The notes beneath the pieces were generated by a model. It made no database searches, was not told where the DNA came from, and saw nothing but the letters and a program-made list of their open reading frames with translations. A program made the position numbers and the translations under genes. A stretch of 64,000 nucleotides of DNA, taken from Legionella taurinensis. GTDB lineage: Bacteria > Pseudomonadota > Gammaproteobacteria > Legionellales > Legionellaceae. Location: the NCBI RefSeq assembly GCF_900452865.1, contig NZ_UGOZ01000001.1, forward strand, positions 186,001 to 250,000. Direction: 5' to 3'. Below, one piece after another: positions 51,934 to 58,677 of this stretch. Position 1 is the first letter of the stretch. The number at the start of each line of letters is the position of its first letter.

Positions 51934-52096
51934 ATCCTGTCCTGAAATAGCCTTTGCAGACCTTATTATGCCAGAGATTGGCTAAAATGCTCGGTGGGAA
52001 ATGAGCTTAGCAGTTGGTTTCAACGGAGTTAAAAATTGATTATAAATCGCTGCCCACGTTAAACTAGCGCCCCTGTAAATGGTTAAGGATTTCGTT

Positions 52097-52942
52097 ATGC
52101 CCAAATTCACTGAAGCCTTGTTGGCTGCAACCTACAAGAATGGAAAACCAAGCGGTGCACTGACGGAAGTGCATGCCAAAGCGGAACATCACCGCTTTAA
52201 AAAAGACCATCTTTTTAAAGACAAGGCGATACCGAAGGCGGTGTATGCTTCTCGCCTGATTCAACATTATTTAATTATCCAAAGCCTGGAAATGCATCTT
52301 CAAGCGCTGTCTACAGCAAAAGAATCAGCCCTTAGTGCCTTTTTTATTTTATCTTACTTAAACGAACTCTGGCGAACGCCGGCCATCGAAAGGGATTTGC
52401 AGCAATTGGGTATTAATCCAAAAGAAATAAGGGCGAGTGAGGTTGCTCCTGCAACAACGAAGTACCTCGAAAAAATTGACAATGCGTCGCCGCAGGCACT
52501 ACTGACTCATTTTCTGGTGCATGTCGCTGGGTTTATGCATGGCGGTAATATCATTCTCAACAAATACATTAAACCCAGTAATGAATTGACCGATTATCAA
52601 ATTTCAACCCATCAATATGATTTTTCCGCCGCCTTCCCCCGCTTGCCGGAAAAAAGCCGTTCAACCCTGGGCCTGTACCAGGAGATGATGACGCATCTTG
52701 ACACGAAACTGGTGCTTTCATCGCATGACTATGACGAGGTTGTTAAGGAGGCCCAGTGTGTTTACGAGGCCATGACTGGGATTTATGACGATTTATGTGA
52801 GATGCATGCCCGTCAACCCCTTGTTTCAACCTCGTCAATTGCCAAGGTCGGCGTCAGTTTAATTGTTGTTGCCTGGGTATTAAAATGCCTCTTTGATTTA
52901 TTCAATCCAGTCGCCAATAGCCTGTCGGCAGCCACGCCTTAA
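52097..52942 (+). CDS. Heme-oxygenase-like protein with C-terminal membrane anchor
   Basis: The 281-residue protein resembles the heme oxygenase fold: ALTEVHAKAEHHRF near the N-terminus supplies a candidate heme-ligand His, and HVAGFMHGGNIILNKY matches the glycine-rich distal helix (GDLSGG in human HO-1). Heme oxygenases release iron from heme. The final 35 residues hold a hydrophobic helix (VGVSLIVVAWVLKCLFDLF), so the domain would be tail-anchored, as in eukaryotic HO-1 but unusual for bacterial forms. I start at ATG 52097 with TAAGGAT upstream. It might be a non-enzymatic relative. Confidence 0.65.
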   Translation: MPKFTEALLAATYKNGKPSGALTEVHAKAEHHRFKKDHLFKDKAIPKAVYASRLIQHYLIIQSLEMHLQALSTAKESALSAFFILSYLNELWRTPAIERDLQQLGINPKEIRASEVAPATTKYLEKIDNASPQALLTHFLVHVAGFMHGGNIILNKYIKPSNELTDYQISTHQYDFSAAFPRLPEKSRSTLGLYQEMMTHLDTKLVLSSHDYDEVVKEAQCVYEAMTGIYDDLCEMHARQPLVSTSSIAKVGVSLIVVAWVLKCLFDLFNPVANSLSAATP

Positions 52943-53193: not shown

Positions 53194-53370
53194 ATGGAAA
53201 AAAACAACGAGCGAGTCCTGGCTTATTCAATGGCTAAACCATTGTCCGAAAAAGAAATGATGGAAGTGGCTGGCGGTGCGGCCAACTACACCACAAGACA
53301 CACCTTTCGCGTGACAGGAGGTACAGGGCCATCTGCTGATGTGGCTTATGATGTAAGCATCGATTGGTAA
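53194..53370 (+). CDS. Ribosomal precursor peptide with double-glycine leader
   Basis: This 58-residue frame has an excellent ribosome site (AAGGAG, seven bases before ATG). Residues 1-28 form a leader ending LSEKEMMEVAGG, the pattern cleaved by C39 peptidases after Gly28. The core (residues 29-58) is AANYTTRHTFRVTGG followed by TGPSADVAYDVSIDW, rich in Thr and Ser with three Asp, which suits ester or amide linkage by an ATP-grasp ligase. It lacks Cys, so lanthionine or sactipeptide chemistry is excluded. The neighbouring genes supply ligase, exporter and peptidase. I see no further precursor copies nearby. Confidence 0.85.
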   Translation: MEKNNERVLAYSMAKPLSEKEMMEVAGGAANYTTRHTFRVTGGTGPSADVAYDVSIDW

Positions 53371-53378
53371 CCTAACAA

Positions 53379-53402
53379 CACGGGGTCGTAAGGGGCCCCG
53401 TG
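53379..53402 (+). terminator. Intercistronic hairpin after the precursor gene
   Basis: CACGGGG (53379-53385) pairs with CCCCGTG (53396-53402), with two more inner pairs, and no T-run but an A-run follows. It is located between precursor stop and ATP-grasp start, so it likely limits read-through or protects the precursor mRNA, giving more peptide than enzyme. Confidence 0.6.
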
Positions 53403-53424
53403 AAAAAAGCGACAGGAATTTTAC

Positions 53425-54546
53425 ATGAAGTTTTTAATCTTGACGGAGCCTGACGACAGTCACGCAATGTGTGTTAAATTGGCGTTGGAAAAAACGGGGC
53501 ATGACGTTCGATTGCTTTTTACAGCCGATCTACCGACCAAACAGAAGAACTCGGTTTACATTGATAATGTCAGTTACGAATGGAAAAGCACGGATGCCGA
53601 GTTGTGTGTACGCGACAATTATTATGATGTCGTTTGGTGGCGGCGCGCACGCAAGCCTTTTCTGCCAAGGGAGGCTGTTCATCCTGACGATTACCATTTT
53701 GTCTTACGTGAAAATATTCTTTTCCATGAATCCATCACCCACAATTTGGCACCCAAAGCCTGGTGGGTTAACAGTAAAGAGGCGGCCCTGAGAGCCAATT
53801 CCAAACTCCTCCAGTTGAAATGGGCTGTCCAGTGCGGTTTAACCATTCCGTCTACCCTTTGTTCGAATGATCCTAAGGATATACGGTATTTCCTGTTGAA
53901 ACATGAAGATCAGGGGGTTATCTACAAGCCACTTTGTTCCAATGTCTGGTTTGAGGAAAGGGCGCTTAAAATTGCTTACACTGCCAAAGTGGCTTTTCTG
54001 GATTTACCCAGTAATCAATTGCTGCAACTGGCGCCGGGACTTTTTCAGAAAGAAGTCAAAAAGAAATACGAATTGCGCGTGACTTGTTTTGGCGATTACC
54101 TGGTCGCGGCCAAATTAAACTCTCAACAGCATGACGAGGGACGCATTGACTGGCGTGCCATTCCTGAGGGCCAATTAACGATCGAACCGTATTCATTGCC
54201 GACCGAAATCGAAAACAGAATCAGGCATTTGATGAAAAAAATGGGATTGGTATTTGGTTGCATCGATTTCATTGTTTCGACCGACGACCAGTATGTTTTT
54301 CTGGAAGTAAATGAGCAGGGGCAGTTTTTATGGATCGAAGACTTAAATCCTGCATTTCCCATGCTGGATCTTTTTGTCCAATTTCTGACAAATCAGTCCG
54401 TGCATTTTGTTCCAGCCAGTCAACCGCCGAGGCATTGGGTTACTGATTATGAACGCGAAGCGGGCGAGTGGATGGAGCGAAGCAGGAGACAACATGTCGA
54501 AATCAATGCATTGAAAACGAACCAGGGGCAACGACAGCATGCGTAA
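53425..54546 (+). CDS. ATP-grasp peptide ligase, RiPP maturase (graspetide-synthetase-like)
   Basis: The 373-residue protein has the MvdD/RimK-like ATP-grasp layout: an N-terminal pre-ATP-grasp domain with DVVWWRRARKPFLP, a central VIYKPL lysine for ATP binding, ELRVTCFGDYLVAAKLNSQ, and the metal-binding FLEVNEQGQFLWIE near residues 291-304. This last motif is the hallmark of ligases that close ester or amide rings between side chains in graspetides. An AGGA site precedes the ATG. It overlaps the next gene by eight bases. I infer that it modifies the peptide encoded 55 bases upstream. Confidence 0.85.
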   Translation: MKFLILTEPDDSHAMCVKLALEKTGHDVRLLFTADLPTKQKNSVYIDNVSYEWKSTDAELCVRDNYYDVVWWRRARKPFLPREAVHPDDYHFVLRENILFHESITHNLAPKAWWVNSKEAALRANSKLLQLKWAVQCGLTIPSTLCSNDPKDIRYFLLKHEDQGVIYKPLCSNVWFEERALKIAYTAKVAFLDLPSNQLLQLAPGLFQKEVKKKYELRVTCFGDYLVAAKLNSQQHDEGRIDWRAIPEGQLTIEPYSLPTEIENRIRHLMKKMGLVFGCIDFIVSTDDQYVFLEVNEQGQFLWIEDLNPAFPMLDLFVQFLTNQSVHFVPASQPPRHWVTDYEREAGEWMERSRRQHVEINALKTNQGQRQHA

Positions 54547-55579
54547 GTTATTTTGTATTTTTGGTGTTCTTTTTCCGATGGTCTTACTAGCTAAAACGAC
54601 GATTGATCTGTTTGGCGACGAGGGGAGTCAGGCCGATCGCGTACTTAAGCAATACAGTGGGCCGATACTGGCCCTGGAAGAATCATTGCATGAATTGCTA
54701 TTAAGTGATCAACTGCAGACGCATCCCGAGAAGCTTAACGAGGCGGGTAAGCGAAAAAGGGCTCTGGTTAATAAGATAAAAAAAGAGTACGGTTATGCGT
54801 ATGTTGATGTATCGACAGTCAACTATTCGAGCGATTCTGTCTACATCACCATTGAGGTGATTCGCAAAGAGCAGACTCATCGTCTTCGGTTTATTGATGA
54901 TCACAGACCCGTGAAGCACAGTGCCAGGAAAGACCTCATCCATGACATGGAGAGGTACAATGAGTTGGGTACCACCTTGTTTTTAAATGATCAATTGAAT
55001 CCCGAAAAACTGGATTGCCCCGTCTATCACTGTACCTGGGGGTTTGAGCATCCAAAATTAAAGCCTTTCTATGCTCCATTTCAACAGGGGGTCAGTGCAC
55101 AGAAATCATTAATCCTCGAGACGCTTGATGCTGATACGGATCCGGAAAGACGGGCGGCGGCTGTGTTTTTAGTCGGGCATTTTGCTAACCCTCAGGAAAT
55201 TATTGATTTGTTGCTACCGCATGTTCTGGATAAGGACAGTGGCGTTCGTAATAACGCCATGCGGGTGATAGGGACGACGTTGGCTAAATACAAGACGGCA
55301 CGTGTCAACATCGAGCCTTTCCTTCACTTGTTATCCTCGCCTTATGACACGGATAGAAACAAATCCTTGTTGGTGCTGCTGCAGGTATGTGATGCCAATC
55401 GACAAAAAATGATTCAGGAGGGCAAAGAATCCCTGTTGGCTCTGTTGGCATTAAAACAACCGAACAATCATGAGCCTGCGTATCAGATTTTGAAAAAAAT
55501 CAGCGGTAAAAACTACACTGATACCGATCTCAAATCATGGAAAGCCTGGGCTGATTCCGTTCAGGTCTCTAACCAATAG
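54539..55579 (+). CDS. Exported HEAT-repeat protein in the RiPP operon
   Basis: The 346-residue product has a signal peptide (MRKLFCIFGVLFPMVLLAKT). Residues about 30-180 are an unrecognised domain with CPVYHCTWGFEHPK, and residues about 190-330 have paired helices like HEAT repeats (RRAAAVFLVGHFANPQEIID, DSGVRNNAMRVIGTTLA, DRNKSLLVLLQVCDAN). It is expected in the periplasm. It starts within the ATP-grasp gene and precedes the HlyD gene, so it is part of the operon. It could be an immunity protein, a periplasmic chaperone or a processing partner. Confidence 0.7.
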   Translation: MRKLFCIFGVLFPMVLLAKTTIDLFGDEGSQADRVLKQYSGPILALEESLHELLLSDQLQTHPEKLNEAGKRKRALVNKIKKEYGYAYVDVSTVNYSSDSVYITIEVIRKEQTHRLRFIDDHRPVKHSARKDLIHDMERYNELGTTLFLNDQLNPEKLDCPVYHCTWGFEHPKLKPFYAPFQQGVSAQKSLILETLDADTDPERRAAAVFLVGHFANPQEIIDLLLPHVLDKDSGVRNNAMRVIGTTLAKYKTARVNIEPFLHLLSSPYDTDRNKSLLVLLQVCDANRQKMIQEGKESLLALLALKQPNNHEPAYQILKKISGKNYTDTDLKSWKAWADSVQVSNQ

Positions 55580-55595
55580 CCATTGAGTGTGTCCA

Positions 55596-56594
55596 ATGAG
55601 TCAATTATTCAGGCAGGAAGTCCTGGACTTCAAAAAAACTAAAAATTTTGGTTCGGTATTCATTAATATTCCTTTTAATGTTTATGTCCTGTCGTTTGCT
55701 ATGGCGGTCATTTTAAGCCTGATGATCCTGTTCCTGTGTGTTGCCGAGTATTCAGAAAAGTACACGGTTAATGGCTATCTGGATTACTCCAAAGGGTTCA
55801 TTCAGATCTACTCCGGCAAAAGCGGACTGATAGTAAAGGGACAGGCGAAAAGTCACCAACATGTCAATCAAGGGGATGTTTTATTTAAAATAGACACCTC
55901 TTATTCGGATGCGCCCAGTCAAAGTAAAATACTGGGCCGCATTAACCACCAAACACGGCGGCTGCGTCAGGACATCGTGCGGATAAAAAAAGAATTATTG
56001 GTTCTTAAGCCCCTGCTGGCAAAAAAATACATCTCAGCGGATGTGTATAACAACAAAAAAGACCGTCTCAGCGAGTTAAGGAATAAGAAAAATCAGCTGG
56101 AAATTGAGCGGATTCAGCATCAAAAGCGAAATGCTTACATTGTTCGGGCACCGATTAACGGCAGATTGACGGTTATTCATTACCAGGTGGGGCAGCAGGT
56201 TAGTCCTTCTGACGAGCTGGTAAAAATTATTCCAGACAACACCGATCTCATTGCTGAAATTCAGGTTCCTGTTAAACACGCCGGGTTTATGACCAAAAAT
56301 GATCCGATCACGCTTCGTTACGATGCTTATCCCTATGAGCGCTTTGGTACTTACACGGCGGTCATTAAAGACATTGATCCGGTGATTAGTCTCGATAAGA
56401 CAGCCTCCCATTCGCTGGTAACGCCTGATCCCTATTACAGGGTGCGGGCTAAGCTCGACAGTCAGAGTGTGACGGTCTATGGTCGGCAAAAGGGTTTGCA
56501 GCAGGGGATGACCTTTTCTGCTGTGATGACAGGCACACGTCGAAAAGTCTGGCAATGGATTTGGGAACCCATTGACCATTTTATGGGAAGTTAA
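55596..56594 (+). CDS. HlyD-family membrane fusion protein
   Basis: This adaptor bridges an inner-membrane ABC exporter and an outer-membrane TolC-type channel. The 332-residue protein has one N-terminal membrane helix (VYVLSFAMAVILSLMILFL, residues about 29-50), a lipoyl/barrel-sandwich domain split around a coiled coil (residues about 120-180), and YIVRAPINGRLTVIHYQVGQ. It resembles the CvaA/RaxA type serving peptide secretion. I use ATG 55596, not GTG 55587. It overlaps no gene but ends four bases before the exporter start. No TolC gene is nearby. Confidence 0.85.
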   Translation: MSQLFRQEVLDFKKTKNFGSVFINIPFNVYVLSFAMAVILSLMILFLCVAEYSEKYTVNGYLDYSKGFIQIYSGKSGLIVKGQAKSHQHVNQGDVLFKIDTSYSDAPSQSKILGRINHQTRRLRQDIVRIKKELLVLKPLLAKKYISADVYNNKKDRLSELRNKKNQLEIERIQHQKRNAYIVRAPINGRLTVIHYQVGQQVSPSDELVKIIPDNTDLIAEIQVPVKHAGFMTKNDPITLRYDAYPYERFGTYTAVIKDIDPVISLDKTASHSLVTPDPYYRVRAKLDSQSVTVYGRQKGLQQGMTFSAVMTGTRRKVWQWIWEPIDHFMGS

Positions 56595-56598
56595 GTTA

Positions 56599-58677
56599 AT
56601 GAATTCAATGCAACTCACTTTTAAATGGCAACGGCGTGCTGCGCTTCCTGTCATTATTCAGGATGAAACCGCCGAATGTGGCCACGCCTGTGTGGCGATG
56701 GTCAGCAATTATCACGGCCATGAATTGAATCTGCCTGCACTAAGGGCACTATCAAAACCGTCCAACCGGGGAACAACCTTACTGGATATGACGCGGTTAC
56801 TGACTACGCTCGGGTTTAGAACCCGTGCTTTGCGTGTGCCACTGGAAGAACTCCAGTTCGTTCAGTGCCCTGCAATTCTGCATTGGGATTTAAATCATTT
56901 TGTTGTGTTAAAAAAGGTTAAAAGAGGGCATGCGATTATTCATGATCCGGTGAGTGGCGTGAAGAAGTGCAAGATGGAGGAGCTATCCAAATCCTTTACC
57001 GGTATCGCCCTGGAAATTGAAAAAGAGGCCGACTTTAAGGCCATAAGAGATAATCAATCGTTGACGCTGACCCGTCTGGCGTCATCCATCCATGGGGTCA
57101 AAAAATTCATTACGCTGCTTCTTTTCTTTTCGGCGTTCATTGAACTGTTCAACCTGATTAATCCCCTGTTTATGCAATTTGTGACGGATAACATCATCAG
57201 TACCCACAATGCCCATAATCTGTATTTCATTGCCTGTGGGTTTGTGCTATTGGTTCTTATTCAAACATTGGCCGAATACATCCGCGGCCATGTGGTGATT
57301 TATGTCGGTAGTCACCTGACCGAGCAGTTTTCCTCGAATATTGTGCAGCATATTCTCAAATTGCCGTTGGATTTTTTTGAAAAAAGACACAAGGGCGACG
57401 TTCAGTCCCGTTTTCAATCGATTGAAGAAATTCAAAAAAAGATCAGCACCGATTTTATCAGTACGCTTTTTGACGGTTTAATGATTGCTATTAATCTGAC
57501 TGTCATGGCATTTTACAGTATTCCGTTAACCGCCATTGTGCTGGTTGCCCTGGCGTTGTACGTCCTTATCCGCCAGACCAGCTATCATTTTTTAAAAAAA
57601 CAGACTGAAACCTCCATTGCGCAGCATGCCAAAGCCTCGTCCGCTTTTCTGGAGACGCTTCATGGGATTTTACCCATCAAAGCGTTTTTAAAAGAACAGA
57701 CTCAATTCAACACTTGGCGAAACGCATTCATTGCCTCGCTGAACGCGGATATCCGGATTGCGCGGGTGAATCTCATTTACCGTATGTTCAACCAATTTCT
57801 GTTTCATATCGAACATATTATTGTCGTGTGCGCAGGCGCGTCATTGGTACTGACCAACCAATTTTCATTGGGCATGCTCATGGCTTTTCTGGCTTACCGG
57901 TTGTCTTTGGTGAATAAGGCCTCTACGTTTATTCAGAGTTTGTTTGATTACAGACTCATCGCTCTCCAGCTCCATCGTTTAAGCGACATTGTTTTTCAGG
58001 AGCCTGAAGCAATAAGTCCAGGAAAAGGTGAACTTAAATCCATCAATGGTTCACTCCGCATGCAGGACGTCACTTTTCGATATAATCCCGAAGGGGACGA
58101 CGTGATAAGCCGCCTTAATTTGGACATTAAGGCCGGAGAAAAAGTGGTCATTACTGGTCCCTCCGGTTGCGGCAAATCCACCTTATTAAAAGTAGCCATG
58201 GGGCTTTTAAACAAAACGCAGGGTGAAATTTTTATTGATGGCAAGCCCCTGCAGGAGTTCGGTATCCACAATTTAAGGCAAATGTCGGCATCAGTCATGC
58301 AGGATGATGTGCTGCTCAGTGGTTCGATACTCAATAATATTGCGTTTTTTGATGAAGCCATGGATTTGGAGCGCGTGTATGAATCGGCTAAACTTGCGTG
58401 TATCCACGAAGAAATTGAGCAATTTCCCATGGGTTATGAGACGTTAGTAGGTGACATGGGCTCTACGCTTTCGGGTGGACAAAAGCAGAGAATACTCCTG
58501 GCTCGGGCCTTGTATAAACAACCCAAAATACTCTTTCTTGATGAGGCAACCAGCCATCTGGACATTGAAAATGAAAGAAAGATAAACCAGTCGCTTAATC
58601 GGCTTGCTATAACCCAGGTCGTGATCGCTCACCGACCAGAAACGATAAAAATGGCAGACAGGGTGATCCATTTGTAA
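56599..58677 (+). CDS. ABC exporter with C39 peptidase domain
   Basis: The 692-residue protein cleaves double-glycine leaders and exports the core peptide. The C39 domain (residues 1-130) shows its catalytic residues: Gln21, Cys27 in QDETAECGHAC, His100 in DLNHFVVL and Asp116 in IIHDPVSG. A six-helix membrane domain (about 165-445) and an ATPase domain (about 480-692) follow, with GPSGCGKST, LSGGQKQR and ILFLDEATS. The peptidase appears active. It is of the CvaB/RaxB kind. Last gene of the peptide operon. Confidence 0.93.
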   Translation: MNSMQLTFKWQRRAALPVIIQDETAECGHACVAMVSNYHGHELNLPALRALSKPSNRGTTLLDMTRLLTTLGFRTRALRVPLEELQFVQCPAILHWDLNHFVVLKKVKRGHAIIHDPVSGVKKCKMEELSKSFTGIALEIEKEADFKAIRDNQSLTLTRLASSIHGVKKFITLLLFFSAFIELFNLINPLFMQFVTDNIISTHNAHNLYFIACGFVLLVLIQTLAEYIRGHVVIYVGSHLTEQFSSNIVQHILKLPLDFFEKRHKGDVQSRFQSIEEIQKKISTDFISTLFDGLMIAINLTVMAFYSIPLTAIVLVALALYVLIRQTSYHFLKKQTETSIAQHAKASSAFLETLHGILPIKAFLKEQTQFNTWRNAFIASLNADIRIARVNLIYRMFNQFLFHIEHIIVVCAGASLVLTNQFSLGMLMAFLAYRLSLVNKASTFIQSLFDYRLIALQLHRLSDIVFQEPEAISPGKGELKSINGSLRMQDVTFRYNPEGDDVISRLNLDIKAGEKVVITGPSGCGKSTLLKVAMGLLNKTQGEIFIDGKPLQEFGIHNLRQMSASVMQDDVLLSGSILNNIAFFDEAMDLERVYESAKLACIHEEIEQFPMGYETLVGDMGSTLSGGQKQRILLARALYKQPKILFLDEATSHLDIENERKINQSLNRLAITQVVIAHRPETIKMADRVIHL

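What the first reader, a model, noticed from the sequence alone, without database searches (positions are those of the whole stretch)
53194..58677. Undescribed ribosomal peptide system: GG-leader precursor, ATP-grasp ligase, HEAT protein, HlyD and C39 exporter
Five genes in one direction, four of them within a few bases of each other, make a full path: 58-residue precursor with LSEKEMMEVAGG leader, MvdD/RimK-like ATP-grasp ligase, exported HEAT protein, membrane fusion protein, and ABC exporter with intact C39 triad (Cys27, His100, Asp116). Graspetides are made by such ligases, but known cores carry motifs such as TxKxPSD or TTxxxxEE, which are not present here. The operon lacks a SPASM partner and has instead an exported HEAT protein. 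I know of no described Legionella product of this kind.
Basis: partly seen in the sequence, partly recalled or inferred. Interest (0 to 1): 0.93.

Follow-up and report, generated by a model that had tools for sequence, protein, structure and literature searches.

The report
Legionella graspetide operon with HEAT partner
This is a small gene set with which a Legionella very likely makes, cross-links and exports a hairpin-shaped peptide of the known graspetide class, together with an unexplained, apparently exported partner protein that usually travels with it in related bacteria.

Summary
In detail: precursor, ATP-grasp ligase, HEAT protein, HlyD and C39-ABC exporter lie where stated. The ligase groups with graspetide synthetases, not with RimK. 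The precursor frame is conserved. I kept 68 precursors with a common leader; 37 of their 66 distinct cores carry T-x3-T-x3-T ... D-x3-D-x3-D (shuffles 0.02 on average; other spacings 0-2). Loss of the outermost donor goes with loss of the outermost acceptor, so I predict three nested side-chain esters in a stem-loop, as in OEP6-1 and fuscimiditide; the two inner pairs vary too little to confirm this. The claim that no Legionella product is described fails: a 2022 paper made two triply dehydrated group 8 graspetides from Legionella pneumophila genes in E. coli; whether that ligase is an ortholog could not be tested. What seems undescribed is the HEAT protein: present in 59 of 68 family genomes with the ligase and 2 of 75 without, next after the ligase gene in 61 of 81 cases. 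I read it as a periplasmic partner of the product (binder, chaperone or immunity protein); that role is inference.

The parts
53194..53370 (+). graspetide precursor, 58 aa, leader of 28 aa ending in GG
   Evidence: leader shared with the other precursors; mostly synonymous codon changes
53278..53367 (+). core of 30 aa; predicted esters Thr41-Asp49 (inner), Thr37-Asp53, Thr33-Asp57 (outer), precursor numbering
   Evidence: ladder statistics; covariation supports the outer pair only; connectivity inferred
53379..53402 (+). RNA hairpin between precursor and ligase gene, 9 pairs
   Evidence: -18.7 kcal/mol, z -2.32, 4 of 200 shuffles as good; in L044 letters differ in both arms and a stem still forms
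53425..54546 (+). ATP-grasp graspetide synthetase, 373 aa
54539..55579 (+). HEAT-repeat partner protein, 346 aa, signal-peptide-like start, invariant Cys160, His164, Cys165
55587..56594 (+). HlyD-type membrane fusion protein
56599..58677 (+). C39 peptidase-ABC exporter, triad Cys27, His100, Asp116

Best explanation
The operon makes and exports a graspetide. The ATP-grasp enzyme binds the R-x-L-A-Y leader, activates core Asp side chains with ATP and joins them to Thr side chains, giving three nested esters in a stem-loop (Thr41-Asp49, Thr37-Asp53, Thr33-Asp57). The C39 domain of the exporter cuts after Gly-Gly and the ABC/HlyD pair exports the product. The HEAT protein, whose gene overlaps the ligase gene, goes to the periplasm and there binds the product, as chaperone, immunity protein or receptor. 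Shown here by sequence: the genes, their families, the ladder, the co-occurrence of HEAT and ligase. Inferred: the chemistry, the connectivity, the place and role of the HEAT protein. The target outside the cell is unknown; protease inhibition, as by microviridins, is only a precedent.
For: The ligase matches solved ATP-grasp ligases 5ig9 (E 6.7e-41), 7m4s, 7mgv, 5ig8, 9bou and 7drm (that these are microviridin and related graspetide synthetases is partly recalled). In a tree of 39 chosen rows it lies with MvdC, MvdD and tgmB, apart from the genome's own RimK and a second RimK-family protein (100/99), in a clade of 26 rows (99/96) with a Bradyrhizobium ligase as sister. Ladder in 37 of 66 distinct cores; 500 shuffles mean 0.022, maximum 1; reversed cores 0; spacings 2, 3, 5, 6 give 2, 0, 0, 0. 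Outer donor and outer acceptor covary (phi 0.62: both 44, neither 11, one only 9, of 64; next best of nine pairs 0.31). Fuscimiditide has the same spacing, Thr7-Asp18 inside and Thr3-Asp22 outside (PMC12291112, passages). L. pneumophila graspetides lose three waters. HEAT follows the ligase in 61 of 81, also in a genome of another family (L120).
Against: No product has been seen for this operon. The ligase is below the cut-offs of TIGR04187, MvdC and MvdD. 29 of 66 cores lack the full ladder. The two inner pairs give no support: phi -0.04 for T-4/D2 and 0.18 for T0/D1, both hardly varying, and several cores lack one side of an inner rung only (for instance L074, L075a, L057a, L070b, L072, L062, L096b). 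The sequences are related, the shuffles do not correct for that, and my placing of the register rewards matches and allowed loops of 5-9 only. Nine of 68 ligase genomes have no HEAT match, and L047, L052 and L136 have ligase, HlyD and C39 without HEAT beside them (their genomes have HEAT elsewhere). Fold matches of the HEAT protein are generic.
Confidence: 0.77

Rival explanations
1. The HEAT protein is a maturation partner of the ligase, as MirC is for MirB (rosaritide) or CorD for CorC (corallotide), and the ring formation depends on it.
For: It follows the ligase also where no HlyD or full-length C39 exporter gene was found in the 5.7-8.8 kb held downstream (L066, L079, L080, L094, L128, L134; L134 has only a weak C39-profile match 5.5 kb on). 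Partner proteins of graspetide enzymes exist (PMC13097080: abstract, passages, section 7).
Against: The N-terminal stretches of all 47 copies printed contain, by my reading, a hydrophobic stretch of signal-peptide type, in some behind an extension from an earlier start (no predictor was run); Ala at position 18 is kept in 85%. It should then not meet a cytoplasmic ligase. [quoted passage not shown] no HEAT protein is mentioned in that section, construct lists not seen).
Confidence: 0.2
2. The ligase adds residues or forms plain amides (RimK-like or similar) and makes no macrocycles.
For: Pfam gives only a weak RimK match (14.8 bits, cut-off 21).
Against: NCBIfam graspetide maturases score 170-190 bits against 32 for the rimK family; tree; a spaced Thr/Asp ladder, with Lys only 2.7% of core residues, has no reason in such a reaction.
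Confidence: 0.05
3. The GG peptide is an unmodified bacteriocin or signal that only shares an operon with the ligase.
For: The precursor weakly matches two GG-leader bacteriocin models (E 0.0048 and 0.04, below cut-off).
Against: The R-x-L-A-Y motif, away from the GG site, is kept in 62 of 68 leaders, and the cores keep Thr and Asp at a spacing of four.
Confidence: 0.05
4. The rungs are staggered or parallel and not nested.
For: No structure exists; microviridin cross-links are staggered (PMC12291112, passage); the inner pairs show no covariation.
Against: In the 11 cores that lack both T-8 and D3 the distance from T0 to the first Asp stays at 6-8, as nesting predicts and parallel pairing does not.
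Confidence: 0.22

Closest known systems
Gra-7A/Gra-7B, group 8 graspetides from Legionella pneumophila (PMC9576775)
   Same: same genus name, ATP-grasp enzyme, three dehydrations each; for Gra-7A placed in the core after cutting with LahT150 (that LahT150 is a GG-type protease is recalled)
   Different: rings not assigned, cutting of Gra-7B failed; sequences not seen here, and L. pneumophila appears not to be held (0 of 143 family genomes matched a 16S probe), so orthology is untested; no HEAT protein in the parts read
Stem-loop graspetides OEP6-1, fuscimiditide, amycolimiditide
   Same: donors before acceptors, nested links (three, two, four), spacing of four in fuscimiditide (passages)
   Different: the latter two carry an aspartimide; no such methyltransferase matched here; Thr-to-Asp loop mostly 7-8 here (33 of the 37 cores with all six residues), 11 in fuscimiditide
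Microviridin MvdC/MvdD systems
   Same: ligase homology; a C39-ABC and an HlyD gene lie beside the Nostoc pair
   Different: one ligase as a rule, other core, separate clade
Partner-dependent graspetides rosaritide and corallotide (PMC13097080)
   Same: a co-occurring extra protein
   Different: partners of other kinds; the word HEAT does not occur in that main text

Membership tests
graspetides (class) | ATP-grasp synthetase of the MvdC/MvdD/tgmB kind | tested here: met
   below the curated cut-offs, so neither MvdC nor MvdD
graspetides (class) | short precursor beside it, leader plus core with Ser/Thr/Lys donors before Asp/Glu acceptors | tested here: met
graspetides (class) | side-chain macrolactones or macrolactams in the product | not testable with these tools
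   needs mass spectrometry
graspetide group 8 of Lee et al. 2020 | ligase in the group 8 cluster, core with the group 8 motif | not tested
   motif and sequences not available (a paper looked up is not held; supplements not readable). Hints only: group 8 includes the L. pneumophila Gra-7 and co-occurs with NHLM-type transporters, the best NCBIfam model for this exporter, under its cut-off
microviridins | core TxKxPSD (motif as the finding gives it) | tested here: not met
   absent by reading from the window core and the other cores
graspimiditides (group 13) | isoaspartyl methyltransferase in the cluster | tested here: not met
   no such match listed for the five proteins
grasp-with-SPASM systems | radical-SAM/SPASM partner | tested here: not met
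   no such match listed; TIGR04192 ligase model 96.1 bits, cut-off 230
C39 peptidase-containing exporters | C39 domain with Cys-His-Asp triad, ABC membrane and ATPase domains | tested here: met

The most novel reading that the evidence does not exclude
A family of exported HEAT/ARM-like solenoids with an invariant Cys-His-Cys site is a dedicated periplasmic partner of graspetides: it catches the cross-linked hairpin in the periplasm, protecting the producer or delivering the peptide, and so is a new kind of component for this peptide class, present in 61 of 143 held genomes of this family and in one further lineage.
Probability: 0.38. Interest if true: 0.62.

Novelty: new variant of a known kind. 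Interest (0 to 1): 0.45.

Why it matters
It turns an 'unknown' operon into a concrete chemical prediction (which side chains are joined) for a peptide family whose ligase is in 68 of 143 held genomes of the window's family, and whose ligase, HEAT protein and small peptides are all still called 'hypothetical protein' in a public L. adelaidensis record. It also points to a co-occurring, apparently exported protein that could be a dedicated periplasmic partner for this class. What such peptides do for bacteria that live in protozoa is open.

Tried and rejected

Rows dropped: precursors were sought with the leader model in 61 of the 80 stretches held (the 19 of L120-L138 were not scanned; L120 was read by eye). 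The 68 kept come from 46 of the 61. Ten gave no hit; five gave only leader-like peptides without GG (L080, L084, L086, L087, L089). Also dropped: L049's first precursor (same as L048's), two truncated copies with GG (L097, L098) and an antisense chance match (L067). In one search, 3 of 84 ligase genes had too little sequence downstream to be judged.

Full report
What is there. The window holds, on the + strand, a 58-residue peptide gene, an ATP-grasp gene, a gene for a HEAT-repeat protein with a signal-peptide-like start, an HlyD gene and a C39-ABC exporter gene. Ligase and HEAT genes overlap by 8 bases, HEAT and HlyD are 7 bases apart, and the exporter ATG follows HlyD by 4. The exporter's triad is as stated. 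Named records with 95% and 87% identical ligases are Legionella rubrilucens and L. erythra, so I take the window to be from a Legionella of that group. In a public record of L. adelaidensis the ligase, the HEAT protein and three small genes before them are 'hypothetical protein'; HlyD and exporter are named.

Ligase. NCBIfam gives 190, 171 and 170 bits for TIGR04187, MvdC and MvdD, under their cut-offs of 350, 425 and 475, and 32 bits for the RimK family. The best solved relatives are ATP-grasp ligases that I know, partly by recall, as microviridin and related synthetases. A tree of 39 chosen rows (29 ligases from window and stretches, 8 from plasmid records, 2 outgroups) separates the genome's RimK and a second RimK-family protein from 37 graspetide-type ligases (100/99). 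Twenty-six rows, 25 from the window's family and one from G246, form one clade (99/96), sister to a Bradyrhizobium ligase and apart from MvdC, MvdD and tgmB (several long branches, so the deep order is unsure). The first tree had two wrong outgroup frames and is void.

Distribution. The ligase is found in 57 of 139 genomes near the window (its own included), 11 of 11 of the genus and 68 of 143 of the family (in G072 and G195 only fragments). The HEAT protein is found in 61 of 143. Read against each other, 59 genomes have both, 9 ligase only (G003, G008, G010, G011, G022, G056, G065, G072, G079), 2 HEAT only (G012, a 40-residue fragment, and G154) and 73 neither. Of 84 ligase genes in the 80 stretches held, 81 could be judged, and 61 of these have HEAT as next family gene within 500 bp. 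Of the 20 others nine are the second ligase of a tandem pair whose first ligase has HEAT (L048, L049, L059, L060, L061, L064, L070, L124, L125), seven are lone ligases with no HEAT, HlyD or C39 gene found (L082, L083, L084, L086, L089, L095, L099), and four have exporter genes but no HEAT beside the ligase (L047, L052, L136; L062 with HlyD only). Near-identical species are counted apart. The HEAT profile matches 5 of 369 class genomes: three of the family and two of one other family, G246 and G460; in the phylum 1 of 398, the window's own. In G246 a peptide with a similar leader (ending GAG, not GG), a ligase and the HEAT gene stand in a row at a contig end (L120). In G460 no ligase was found in the 19 kb held (L121).

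Precursors. A leader model from 18 precursors found by pattern found more; 68 were kept (list, exclusions under Tried and rejected). The motif R-x-L/M-A/G/S-Y/F is in 62 of 68 leaders and 42 of 68 leaders are 28 residues long. Of 66 distinct cores 37 hold three Ser/Thr spaced by four, a loop, and three Asp/Glu spaced by four. Five hundred shuffles give 0.022 on average and at most 1, reversed cores 0, spacings 2, 3, 5 and 6 give 2, 0, 0 and 0. The window core has Thr33, Thr37, Thr41 and Asp49, Asp53, Asp57. A second type, often in the same locus, lacks the first donor and the last acceptor. In 64 cores donor T-8 and acceptor D3 correlate at phi 0.62 (44 both, 5 donor only, 4 acceptor only, 11 neither); the next of the nine pairs is 0.31. 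In the 11 cores without both, the first loop keeps its length (6-8), so the lost rung is the outer one, as nested links predict. Against this: T-4/D2 (-0.04) and T0/D1 (0.18) show no covariation, since they hardly vary; in one genus D1 is lost with T0 kept in L074 and L075a and with T0 lost in L081a; the sequences are related; and my register placing allowed loops of 5-9 only. It is a lead, not a proof.

RNA. A 9-pair hairpin lies between precursor stop and ligase gene. In L044 both arms differ and a stem still forms. In the 75 bases after the stop, folds with z below -1.5 against mononucleotide shuffles follow 36 of 68 precursors (mean z -1.73); other spacers were not folded as control. It might set precursor above enzyme expression; that was not tested.

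HEAT protein. The 47 copies contain, by my reading, a hydrophobic stretch near the N-terminus, in some behind an extension from an earlier start. In 46 copies aligned to the window's, Asp23, Gly26, Tyr96, Thr104, Cys160, His164, Cys165, Arg273, Lys275 and Gln307 are invariant, and Pro308 to His311 are kept in 91-98%. The model (7 sequences, pLDDT 82.4) has an N-terminal alpha/beta part and a helical solenoid; its matches are armadillo/HEAT proteins, many of them peptide binders, a common fold. As it goes with the ligase more than with the exporter (L066, L079, L080, L094, L128, L134 against L047, L052, L136), yet looks exported, I place it in the periplasm as partner of the product. Partner proteins of graspetide enzymes are reported, of other kinds (PMC13097080).

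Known or new. PMC9576775 reports Gra-7A and Gra-7B of L. pneumophila, group 8, three dehydrations each in E. coli, placed in the core for precursor A; cutting of B failed and yields were too low for MS/MS. So a Legionella graspetide is already described, and its number of dehydrations fits a three-rung ladder, though its sequence was not seen here. Nested stem-loops are known: fuscimiditide with the same spacing of four, OEP6-1 with three links. New here, as far as could show, are the ladder with its predicted pairing for this clade and the co-occurring HEAT protein. I rate it a new variant of a known kind, of moderate interest. After checking I lowered three odds a little (best reading, novel case, interest), because the inner pairs give no support and the HEAT protein is missing in part of the loci.

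Noticed in passing
L084:9130-9321, L086 near 9315, L089:7774-7965: Three genomes of the window's genus have a lone ligase preceded by a peptide with the R-V-L-A-Y leader but no GG and no Thr/Asp ladder, alike in all three; no HEAT, HlyD or C39 gene of the family was found in the stretch. Decayed or put to another use.
   Followed up: partly
L100 (G115): A gammaproteobacterium of another family has two ligases that group with MvdC and MvdD of Nostoc (100/100 and 100/99) and a C39-ABC gene: probably a microviridin-type cluster.
   Followed up: partly
L101 (G057:C1:186412-186993): A second, different ATP-grasp in one genome of the family, grouped with a Pedobacter ligase (100/95, but two long branches meet).
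   Followed up: no
L114 (NZ_LR134435.1, L. adelaidensis 'plasmid 26'): The record carries dnaA, dnaN, recF, rpmH, rnpA, yidC and mnmE, so it looks like a piece of chromosome rather than a plasmid.
   Followed up: no
G000:C1:884349-884732 and G000:C1:1578972-1579331: Two further C39 domains in the window's genome; neighbours not examined.
   Followed up: no
window 52079-52942: Upstream gene of 287 aa with a heme-oxygenase-like domain (37.6 bits, cut-off 23) and, by eye, a hydrophobic C-terminal stretch.
   Followed up: no
L122 (G180): HlyD and C39-ABC matches each fall into two separate frames beside an open ligase and HEAT gene.
   Followed up: no
L137 (G154) and L121 (G460): HEAT homologs without a ligase in the stretch held.
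   Followed up: partly
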